In this document: positions 17,786 to 55,520 of the stretch, piece by piece | Layout: each line of letters begins with the position of its first letter | Position numbering within the stretch: the first letter of the stretch is position 1 | Assembly (NCBI GenBank): GCA_015061905.1 | Contig: SUVQ01000002.1 | Location: 62,001-126,000 of the forward strand | Direction: 5' to 3' | DNA: 64,000 nucleotides | DNA from: Verrucomicrobiota bacterium | GTDB lineage: Bacteria > Verrucomicrobiota > Verrucomicrobiia > Opitutales > UBA953 | The notes under the pieces: model-generated | The model's database searches: none | What the model saw: only the letters and a program-made list of their open reading frames with translations | Told to the model about the DNA's origin: nothing | Program-made: the position numbers and the translations under genes

Positions 17786-19537
17786 TTATTTCGAGACTGC
17801 AGGCTGTTTTAGCGGCGGCTGAAGTTGCACCTTGTCGTCGTTTCGGCGCGGCGTTCCCGGCGTCATGTATTCTTCGGGAACGTTGTATTTCTTTTGCAAT
17901 TCTTTGAGTTTTTTCTTCAGCATTGCCGTAATTTCCTCCGTTCCCGGCTGACCGTAAATATTGTTCATTTCGCTCGGGTCGGCGTTCAAATTAAACAATT
18001 CCCATTTGTCTTCCTTGTAGAAGTGAATGAGCTTCCAATCCTGCGAGCCGTCCGGCGAACGGTAGCTGACGCCGCAATGACGGCGCACGCTGTGTTCCGC
18101 CGGATATTCGTAGTAGCAGTAATAAAGCGAATCGCGCCATTCTTTGACCGGTTTGTCGGACTCGAGCAGTTTTTTGAAAGATTCGCCCTGCATTTCTTCG
18201 GGAACGGCGATTCCGCACATGTCGAGGAAAGTCGGCGCGAAGTCGATATTTTGCGTGAGCTGATTGATTTTGTTGCCCTTCACGATTCCCGGACCACTCA
18301 TCATCATCGGCATACGGAAAGATTCCTCATACATGAAACGTTTGTCGAACCACCCGTGCTCGCCGAGATAAAATCCCTGGTCCGAGGTGTAGCAGACGAC
18401 AGTGTTTTCATCGAGTCCGCTTTTTTTCAGGTAATCCAAAAGTTCTCCCACGCCGTCATCCACGCCGCGAATTGTCGCAAGGTAATCTTGCATATAGCGT
18501 TGATACGCCCAGCTTTGGAATTTTTGGAGCTTATCTTTATTTGCGGCGAGCCAAGCTTCGTCGCGGCGGTGTTTGCGCCATTCGTTCCATTCGGCTTCCG
18601 AGCAGATTTTTGCATCGAAAAACGCATCGTTTTTCGCCGTGTAAGCTTTGATGTAAGCCTGATACTGTTTGTCCGACATGCGCGGCGGGAACATCCAGCG
18701 CGGGAGCGAACGCTGATCCTTTGAGGGGAAAAGCTTCAAGTCCGCCGCCCAGCGCATTGTCCACAACAACGACATATCCTGCTCTTTTGCCGCGAAGCGT
18801 CCTTCGTAATTATCGAAGAAATTTTCCGGTTCCGGGAACGTAACATTGTCGTAAAGATTGTAGTATTTTTCTTTCGGAATCCAATTACGGTGCGGAGCTT
18901 TGTAATGCACCATGAAAAAGAAAGGCTTGGATTTGTCCCGCGTGTTTTCAAGCCAGTTAATGGCACCGTGCGTAACGATATCGGTGGAATAACCTTTGGC
19001 GATAATGTGCCCTTTCGGTCCTTTGAAACGCCCGTTGATGTCGCCGCAAATCAAATCCGGATTAATGTAATGCCCTTGTCCGATGAAAACCTGCCACCAG
19101 TCGAAGCCAGTCGGGTCGCTCGGCAAGTGAATTTTCCCGATAATTCCCGTCTGATACCCGTTGGCATGAAAAACCTTGGCGACGTTGTTTTGACGATTGT
19201 CGAAAGTGCCCCATTCGTTACTCATGTAGCCGTTCGCGTGAGAATGTTTTCCGGTGAGCACGCAGGCGCGGGAAGGCCCGGAAATGGAGTTTGCGCAATA
19301 ATTGCGCATGAATAAAGCTCCGTTATTCGCAATGCGGTCGATATTCGGCGTCGGTGCCAATTTCCCCACGGGATGCCCGTAAGCGGAAATCGCCTGAACC
19401 GCGTGGTCATCACTCATGATGTAGATTACGTTGAGCGGTTTTTTAGTTTTCTGCGGTTCCGCCTGAGCGACGGAAACGACGCCGAAAGAAGCCACGGCAA
19501 GCGCGGCGCAGTAGGAGAAACTGGAGGCTTTTTTCAT
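17786..19537 (-). CDS. Secreted serine-type sulfatase
   Basis: Hydrolyses a sulfate ester outside the cytoplasm, probably on a glycan. The 583 residues start at the ATG at 19537 with a signal peptide cut after VSVAQA. Metal ligands are in YIMSDDHAVQA (D43, D44). The formylglycine site is SGPSR (S86-R90) followed by ACVLTGKH, a Ser-type sulfatase core that needs an anaerobic sulfatase-maturating enzyme, which is not in the window. Later blocks include FFFMVHYKAPHRNW, YTSDQGFYLGEHGWFDKRFMYEESFRMP and a C-terminal subdomain. The sequence resembles GlcNAc-6-sulfate and related glycan sulfatases (inference). The GH20 at 49314 would act on desulfated hexosamines. Confidence 0.92.
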   Translation of the reverse strand: MKKASSFSYCAALAVASFGVVSVAQAEPQKTKKPLNVIYIMSDDHAVQAISAYGHPVGKLAPTPNIDRIANNGALFMRNYCANSISGPSRACVLTGKHSHANGYMSNEWGTFDNRQNNVAKVFHANGYQTGIIGKIHLPSDPTGFDWWQVFIGQGHYINPDLICGDINGRFKGPKGHIIAKGYSTDIVTHGAINWLENTRDKSKPFFFMVHYKAPHRNWIPKEKYYNLYDNVTFPEPENFFDNYEGRFAAKEQDMSLLWTMRWAADLKLFPSKDQRSLPRWMFPPRMSDKQYQAYIKAYTAKNDAFFDAKICSEAEWNEWRKHRRDEAWLAANKDKLQKFQSWAYQRYMQDYLATIRGVDDGVGELLDYLKKSGLDENTVVCYTSDQGFYLGEHGWFDKRFMYEESFRMPMMMSGPGIVKGNKINQLTQNIDFAPTFLDMCGIAVPEEMQGESFKKLLESDKPVKEWRDSLYYCYYEYPAEHSVRRHCGVSYRSPDGSQDWKLIHFYKEDKWELFNLNADPSEMNNIYGQPGTEEITAMLKKKLKELQKKYNVPEEYMTPGTPRRNDDKVQLQPPLKQPAVSK

Positions 19538-19592
19538 ACCCCGCCGATTATGAAAAAGCTTTTTTCCCCTGTCAACGTTCCCGTAATAAAAC

Positions 19593-19666
19593 AAAAAGCC
19601 CCGGCGAGAAGAAAGGAGGAAACTCGCCGGGGCGACCCGTAAGGGAAAGGAGGACAACCTTACGGG
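19593..19666 (-). ncRNA. Two-hairpin tRNA-Cys trailer with anti-Shine-Dalgarno loops
   Basis: On the minus strand, 20 nt past the tRNA-Cys CCA, a 9-bp hairpin (19666-19636, loop 19657-19645) is followed by an 11-bp GC-rich hairpin (19633-19598, loop 19622-19609) and T5. Both loops carry TCCTCCTTTC, which differs by one base from the CCUCCUUUC-type 16S rRNA tail that pairs with Shine-Dalgarno sequences. The second hairpin also works as terminator. It may be a trailer-derived small RNA; expression is unknown. Confidence 0.6.
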
Positions 19667-19686
19667 CTATTGGATTGGGAAGAAAT

Positions 19687-19761
19687 TGGAGGCGTGGGTC
19701 GGAATCGAACCGACTCATAGAGATTTTGCAGACCTCGGCCTTCCCATTTGGCTACCACGCC
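19687..19761 (-). tRNA. tRNA-Cys(GCA)
   Basis: The acceptor GGCGTGG (5-prime) pairs with CCACGCC, and the discriminator base is T (U73), the classic tRNA-Cys determinant, followed by an encoded CCA. The anticodon stem-loop is GAGGT-CTGCAAA-ATCTC with anticodon GCA. The T arm contains GGTTCGATTCC. Length is 75 nt including CCA, type I with a short variable loop. Confidence 0.95.
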
Positions 19762-55088: not shown

Positions 55089-55123
55089 ATTTCCCGAGAA
55101 CGTTTTTTGCGGGAAATTCAAAA

Positions 55124-55520
55124 TCTTCGAGGTGCTATAAGCCGGATTCCGTAGCGCGGGGCGCTTTCGCGTTCCCGCGTTCGCATTCATTCCTCTGAAG
55201 CGCGTTCCCGCGCCTCCCGCCTTGCGGCGGTGCGACATACCCGCGAGCATCGGACGGGCAGCCCGCTCGCCTATTCTGTCTTGCACCGGATTGGGTTTGT
55301 CCTGCCTCCTTCGTTGCCGTCGGAGCGGTGAGCTTTTACCTCGCCTTTTCACCCTTACCCGCGCGTTCCCGCGTAGGCGGTTTGTTTTCTGTGACACTGT
55401 CCGTCAACGCGCCTTGCGACGCGCCGCCCCCGTTTTCACGGGGAATCCTGCCCTGTGGTGTCCGGACTTTCCTCTCGCAAAAACCTGCGTTCCCGCGAGC
55501 GAATGCGCGCACCTCGAAGA
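55124..55520 (-). ncRNA. rnpB: RNase P RNA (bacterial type A)
   Basis: The catalytic RNA that matures tRNA 5-prime ends. On the minus strand the 5-prime TCTTCGAGGTGC and 3-prime GCACCTCGAAGA form a perfect 12-bp P1. Conserved GAGGAAAGTCCGGAC (55474-55460) follows, then ACAGAAAACAAACCGCC (55393-55377), GGTAAGGGTGAAAAGG and the 3-prime GAATCCGGCTTATAGCACC. Four octamer copies sit in variable helices; in each the core can fold as a short stem closed by a GGAA tetraloop. Length is about 397 nt. Confidence 0.95.

What the first reader, a model, noticed from the sequence alone, without database searches (positions are those of the whole stretch)
19593..19761. tRNA-Cys trailer with two hairpins displaying anti-Shine-Dalgarno loops
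Downstream of tRNA-Cys, hairpins of 9 bp and 11 bp each present TCCTCCTTTC in the loop, while their stems share no sequence. Loop identity with stem divergence suggests the loop is the functional part. C-rich, anti-SD loops are used by small RNAs (for example alphaproteobacterial cuckoo RNAs) to block ribosome sites. A tRNA-linked RNA of this type might respond to tRNA processing. I do not know this RNA as a described family.
Basis: partly seen in the sequence, partly recalled or inferred. Interest (0 to 1): 0.68.

Follow-up and report, generated by a model that had tools for sequence, protein, structure and literature searches.

The report
tRNA-Cys-linked anti-Shine-Dalgarno loop RNA
In gut Verrucomicrobiota the transcript of a cysteine tRNA carries a short extra RNA whose hairpin tips copy the ribosome's mRNA-binding tail; the tips are preserved while the stems change, and free-standing RNAs of the same design occur in another class of the phylum, so this looks like an undescribed gene-silencing RNA.

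Summary
Downstream of tRNA-Cys (minus strand) are a 10-bp and an 11-bp hairpin, each with UCCUCCUUUC in its loop. The second is the intrinsic terminator. The terminator loop is kept in 7 of 8 genomes of the genus although the stem has been wholly replaced in two of them; the first hairpin's loop is kept in five. All 11 stem pairs covary. No ordinary tRNA trailer in this genome has such a loop, and no strong match was found elsewhere in the order. A tRNA-like gene in a resident prophage carries the same loop on an unrelated stem. In another class of the phylum the hairpin ends free-standing RNAs, up to 10 copies per genome, none next to a tRNA; one (G513) has the same two-hairpin layout and a promoter-like site. 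Rfam has no match. The design is that of alphaproteobacterial alpha-r14/NfeR1 and Bartonella BbsR14 RNAs, without shown homology. The most likely role is base-pairing with rare strong Shine-Dalgarno sites. Against a broad translation blocker, the window's genome and family barely use such sites (11% versus 8% background), whereas the other class does (38% versus 6%). No transcript data exist. I rate it a new variant of a known kind.

The parts
19687..19761 (-). tRNA-Cys (anticodon GCA), with encoded CCA, 5' part of the transcript
   Evidence: ARAGORN; Rfam RF00005 57.7 bits
19786..19813 (-). likely tRNA-Cys promoter, TTGCCA-16-TATCGT (9 of 12)
   Evidence: consensus scan; upstream region partly conserved in G007, G004, G005
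19668..19686 (-). single-stranded spacer ATTTCTTCCCAATCCAATA; CCCAATCCAA core kept in six genomes, partly in G006
19635..19667 (-). hairpin 1 (10 bp), loop TTGTCCTCCTTTC
   Evidence: loop also in G007, G004, G005, G002; absent from hairpin 1 of G001 and G006
19598..19633 (-). hairpin 2 (11 bp), loop TTTCCTCCTTTCTT; stem of the intrinsic terminator
   Evidence: conserved loop with covarying stem
19585..19597 (-). terminator T-tract TTTTTGTTTTATT
   Evidence: T-tract also present in all genus members that have the hairpin
19547..19575 (-). separate promoter (TTGACA-17-CATAAT, 11 of 12) of the downstream sulfatase gene, which would be nearly leaderless
   Evidence: sulfatase Pfam PF00884. Not part of the RNA; shows that the next gene does not depend on it

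Best explanation
It is a small-RNA module built into the 3' end of the tRNA-Cys transcript. One promoter makes tRNA-Cys, a single-stranded spacer, and one or two hairpins, the last of which terminates transcription. Cutting at the tRNA 3' end would release an RNA of about 100 nt whose loops copy the 16S rRNA anti-Shine-Dalgarno tail (UCCUCCUUU). The loops would base-pair with the few mRNAs that have a strong AAAGGAGG site and block their translation, as NfeR1-type RNAs do. Shown: anatomy, loop conservation with stem covariation, the terminator position, match to the 16S tail, and look-alikes not linked to tRNA. Inferred: release of a stable RNA, base-pairing, targets and silencing.
For: Loop kept and stems replaced in 7 of 8 genus genomes. 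All 11 pairs with double-sided changes, covariation 0.98 against 0.28 in shuffles and at most 0.17 when slid, and 0.85 against 0.20 on 82 distinct hairpins. Among 44 tRNAs of this genome only tRNA-Cys and a prophage tRNA-like gene have it. Trailer kept in G001 and G006 though the flanking genes differ, so it does not serve the sulfatase. In other genera, mostly of another class: 77 distinct hairpins, 69 with a T-tract, 60 with CCTCC, none tRNA-linked. G513 has two hairpins with TCCTCC loops, the second a terminator, behind a promoter-like site. Loop equals 10 nt of the 16S tail. Loop pairs at -19 kcal/mol with the start region of a phage-like HTH gene (AGAAAGGAGGAA before ATG) against a background median of -2.9. 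NfeR1 loops of the same design silence ntrB at its start region (PMC10746234).
Against: Shine-Dalgarno motifs are nearly absent from this genome (11% of 165 genes against 8% background) and from sampled genomes of its family, so targets are few. Hairpin 1 has the loop in only 5 of 8 genomes, and G003 has neither. No transcript, target or phenotype data. The 16S tail is from G006, as the window's own assembly lacks a 16S gene. The order-level absence rests on a model search with strict filters.
Confidence: 0.55

Rival explanations
1. The loop is a binding site for a protein, or a decoy of the 16S tail for a protein or ribosome-maturation factor, rather than an antisense to mRNA.
For: The loop copies the 16S tail in a genome that hardly uses Shine-Dalgarno pairing. 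The loop-closing G-C pairs are almost invariant (77 and 75 of 82), and U stretches flanking CCUCC are conserved too.
Against: No candidate protein known; the GAUCA part of the 16S tail recognised by Era (own knowledge) is missing from the loops; loop flanks vary.
Confidence: 0.2
2. These are ordinary intrinsic terminators; the shared loop reflects inheritance of a recent duplication or a bias towards C/U-rich loops.
For: Hairpin 2 is a terminator with a T-tract; most look-alikes are terminators too.
Against: Stems are entirely different while loops are the same, with double-sided changes at every pair. Other tRNA terminators in the same genome have other loops, and of the CCTCCTT-plus-T-run matches genome-wide only the tRNA-Cys and prophage copies have the TTTCCTCCTTTC loop on a long stem.
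Confidence: 0.15
3. The trailer acts as a sponge for another small RNA that carries GGAGG in its seed, as the E. [quoted passage not shown]
For: The precedent is a tRNA 3' external transcribed spacer of a transcript that also holds a tRNA-Cys (PMC6191717).
Against: No partner RNA was identified; a sponge would not readily explain the free-standing multi-copy RNAs of the other class.
Confidence: 0.1

Closest known systems
alpha-r14 / NfeR1 and the cuckoo RNA family (alphaproteobacteria; PMC10746234)
   Different: Motif CCUCCUCCC against UCCUCCUUU; NfeR1 has three hairpins and its own promoter; different phylum; no Rfam match; here fused to tRNA-Cys; host genome nearly without Shine-Dalgarno sites
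BbsR14 of Bartonella bacilliformis (PMC7717549)
   Different: Different phylum; no tRNA link mentioned in the passage read; no homology shown
3'ETS-leuZ of E. coli (PMC6191717)
   Same: Functional RNA cut from the 3' trailer, including the terminator, of a tRNA transcript that also contains a tRNA-Cys gene
   Different: Acts as a sponge for RyhB; no anti-Shine-Dalgarno loops described; no homology
Free-standing anti-SD-loop terminator RNAs found here in another class of the phylum (genus g140, G513, G386, G442)
   Same: Same hairpin: loop UUUCCUCC(U)CUUUU on a covarying stem, followed by a T-tract; G513 has the same two-hairpin layout
   Different: No tRNA nearby, own 5' domains, several copies per genome in g140; common descent with the window RNA not established

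Membership tests
cuckoo / alpha-r14 (NfeR1) | two or more hairpins with identical CCUCC loops on unrelated stems | tested here: met
cuckoo / alpha-r14 (NfeR1) | exact motif CCUCCUCCC | tested here: not met
   loop is UCCUCCUUUC
cuckoo / alpha-r14 (NfeR1) | recognisable by an Rfam covariance model at gathering score | tested here: not met
   only RNase P and tRNA match in the window; only tRNA in relatives. Whether Rfam holds a cuckoo model was not checked
cuckoo / alpha-r14 (NfeR1) | base-pairs with mRNA start regions and silences them | not testable with these tools
   only duplex energies computed
tRNA 3'ETS regulatory RNAs | lies between a tRNA 3' end and its terminator on the same transcript | tested here: met
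   tRNA-Cys followed by hairpins and T-tract with no second promoter found between; co-transcription itself is inferred
tRNA 3'ETS regulatory RNAs | accumulates as an RNA after processing | not testable with these tools
   no RNA data
anti-SD-loop terminator hairpins of the phylum (model R3) | 11-pair covarying stem around a UCCUCC loop, followed by a T-tract | tested here: met
   window hairpin 2 scores 49.1 bits, but it was in the seed of the model

The most novel reading that the evidence does not exclude
In a lineage that has almost given up Shine-Dalgarno sites, a steadily made anti-Shine-Dalgarno RNA attached to a tRNA could selectively silence incoming genes that still use them, such as phage genes; a resident prophage carries its own version of the loop. 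Two or three of the roughly half dozen genes with AAGGAGG before ATG look phage-derived or phage-like.
Probability: 0.07. Interest if true: 0.9.

Novelty: new variant of a known kind. Interest (0 to 1): 0.6.

Why it matters
Anti-Shine-Dalgarno-loop RNAs of this design are known to me from alphaproteobacteria. Finding the same design in Verrucomicrobiota, once as the tail of a tRNA transcript and elsewhere as multi-copy free-standing RNAs, suggests that copying the ribosome's own tail in a hairpin loop is a recurrent solution. The contrast between one class that uses Shine-Dalgarno sites and one family that does not makes it testable what such RNAs do when their expected targets are rare.

Tried and rejected
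Plus-strand reading (GGAGG loops, CsrA-sponge-like): rejected, because the T-tract follows the hairpins on the minus strand in the window and relatives. Regulation of the downstream sulfatase: rejected, because it has its own promoter and was not found next to the trailer in G001 and G006. A general feature of this genome's terminators: rejected. Pairing of the spacer with the tRNA D-loop (UGGGAAG/CUUCCCA): by eye in the window only, and not kept in G001. The two loops are the same sequence and cannot pair with each other. Weak R2 hits in other genera of the family and in G218 look like coding sequence or chance; R2 hits L378 and L380 are GC-rich hairpins without CCTCC. Viral contigs: the terminase search found one remote 4.8-kb contig; the pattern scan gave 120 unsorted matches and was not pursued.

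Full report
Observation. The minus strand reads tRNA-Cys (19761-19687), a 19-nt spacer, hairpin 1 (19667-19635), hairpin 2 (19633-19598) and a T-tract. Both loops hold TCCTCCTTTC, the only two copies in the window against 0.14 expected. The stretch folds far better than shuffles (z = -6.4). Hairpin 2 with TTTTTGTTTTATT is an intrinsic terminator. The next gene, a sulfatase, has its own promoter-like site.

Setting. The window is part of a 2.08-Mb draft genome in 17 contigs. The nearest named relative by sulfatase (97%) is an Opitutales MAG from sheep rectum, so Verrucomicrobiota; the trailer is present there too. The assembly has no 16S gene; the one in genus member G006 ends GGATCACCTCCTTTCTATGGAG, sharing CCTCCTTTCT with the terminator loop.

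Conservation in the genus. Trailers were read in the genus. G007, G004, G005 and G002 have both loops. G001 and G006 keep the loop in the terminator on completely different stems and have a first hairpin without it. G003 has an ordinary terminator. Flanking genes differ in G001 and G006. The spacer core CCCAATCCAA is kept in six genomes. A covariance model (R1, then R2 from 12 hairpins) gives double-sided changes at all 11 pairs. Over 79 family genomes strong hits fall only in this genus; over 373 order genomes likewise, apart from one weak hit in G218, which on reading has a short A/T-rich stem. Among 44 tRNAs of the genome only tRNA-Cys and the prophage tRNA-like gene have such a trailer.

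Prophage copy. At C3:209673-209709 the same loop sits on an unrelated stem with a T-tract, about 90 nt downstream of a low-scoring, 85-nt tRNA-like gene (43 bits). It lies in a prophage, upstream of terminase, head-tail adaptor and other phage-like genes on the same strand. Its terminase has under 30% identity to the best listed phage records. The locus was not found in the other genus members.

Wider phylum. With R2, 388 genomes of the phylum were searched. Beyond GC-rich and coding false hits, clear hairpins with UCCUCC or similar loops appear outside the window's class: genus g140 with several copies per genome, and G513, G386, G442 and, less clearly, G428. G513 has two successive hairpins with TCCTCC loops, the second a terminator, behind TTGACA-TATCTT. 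Model R3 (27 hairpins) over 346 genomes of the class of G697 finds 23 genomes, mostly g140, up to 10 copies in one. Of 77 distinct hairpins outside the window's genus, 69 have a T-tract, 60 have CCTCC, none has a tRNA within 350 nt upstream on the same strand. They follow several different 5' domains, such as AAAATGGG..TTGTTGGGTTCCC. Covariation on 82 distinct hairpins: 96.6% of cells paired, score 0.85 against 0.20 shuffled. These alignments were fitted to the model, which favours pairing; the slid controls (at most 0.22) and the unrelated stems argue that the result is real. Common descent of the window RNA and these RNAs is not shown; convergence is possible.

Function. Identical loops on unrelated stems are how the NfeR1/alpha-r14 RNAs are described, and NfeR1 silences ntrB through these loops (PMC10746234); Bartonella BbsR14 has two TTCCTCCTAA loops (PMC7717549). 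A tRNA trailer with a regulatory role is known in E. coli (PMC6191717). Rfam shows no match. I therefore favour an anti-Shine-Dalgarno antisense RNA. The difficulty is target supply. With crude gene starts, core motifs lie upstream of 11% of 165 genes here against 8% background, and no more in G004, G008 and G009; in G697 it is 38% against 6% with the same method. AAGGAGG-N-TG is rarer than its reversed control (56 against 178). The few genes with AAGGAGG before ATG include a T7 gp14-like virion protein, an HTH protein that looks phage-like, a BACON-domain protein and an FrhB protein. The HTH gene pairs with the loop over 12 nt (-19.1 kcal/mol). These are predictions on a handful of genes, without accessibility modelling or expression data.

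Verdict. The hairpins are real and the loop is very probably under selection. That it is a trans-acting RNA against strong Shine-Dalgarno sites is the best reading but unproven (about 0.55). It is a new variant of a known kind; the tRNA-Cys fusion, the multi-copy look-alikes in another class and the Shine-Dalgarno-poor host are the unexpected parts.

Noticed in passing
L041:1637-1718 (-), G000:C3:209802-209883: An 85-nt degenerate tRNA-like gene (called Gly-TCC, 43 bits) in a prophage, followed by a terminator with the same anti-SD loop; not found in other genus members.
   Followed up: partly
window and L465-L474, L485-L492, L501-L504: Shine-Dalgarno motifs are almost absent upstream of genes in the window's genome and in sampled genomes of its family, although the 16S tail of G006 keeps CCUCC.
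   Followed up: partly
L391-L398, L404-L464 (genus g140 and others): Tandem and dispersed short RNAs with several different 5' hairpins (for example AAAATGGG..TTGTTGGGTTCCCGTTTT) sharing an anti-SD-loop terminator; up to 10 copies per genome.
   Followed up: partly
L192, G003:C5:51752-51785: In G003, which lacks the tRNA-Cys trailer, a promoter-like site and a short hairpin with loop TTCCTATCCTTTTCC stand alone; possibly a degenerate relative.
   Followed up: no
window 19537-19575 (-): The sulfatase promoter TTGACA-17-CATAAT lies so close to the ATG that the mRNA would be nearly leaderless.
   Followed up: no
L044, G000:C6:180695-180746: A terminator-like hairpin whose stem itself pairs AAGGAGG with CCTCCTT, followed by a T-run.
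   Followed up: no
window 55122-55518 (-): Bacterial RNase P RNA class A (RF00010, 223.9 bits); an ordinary gene.
   Followed up: no
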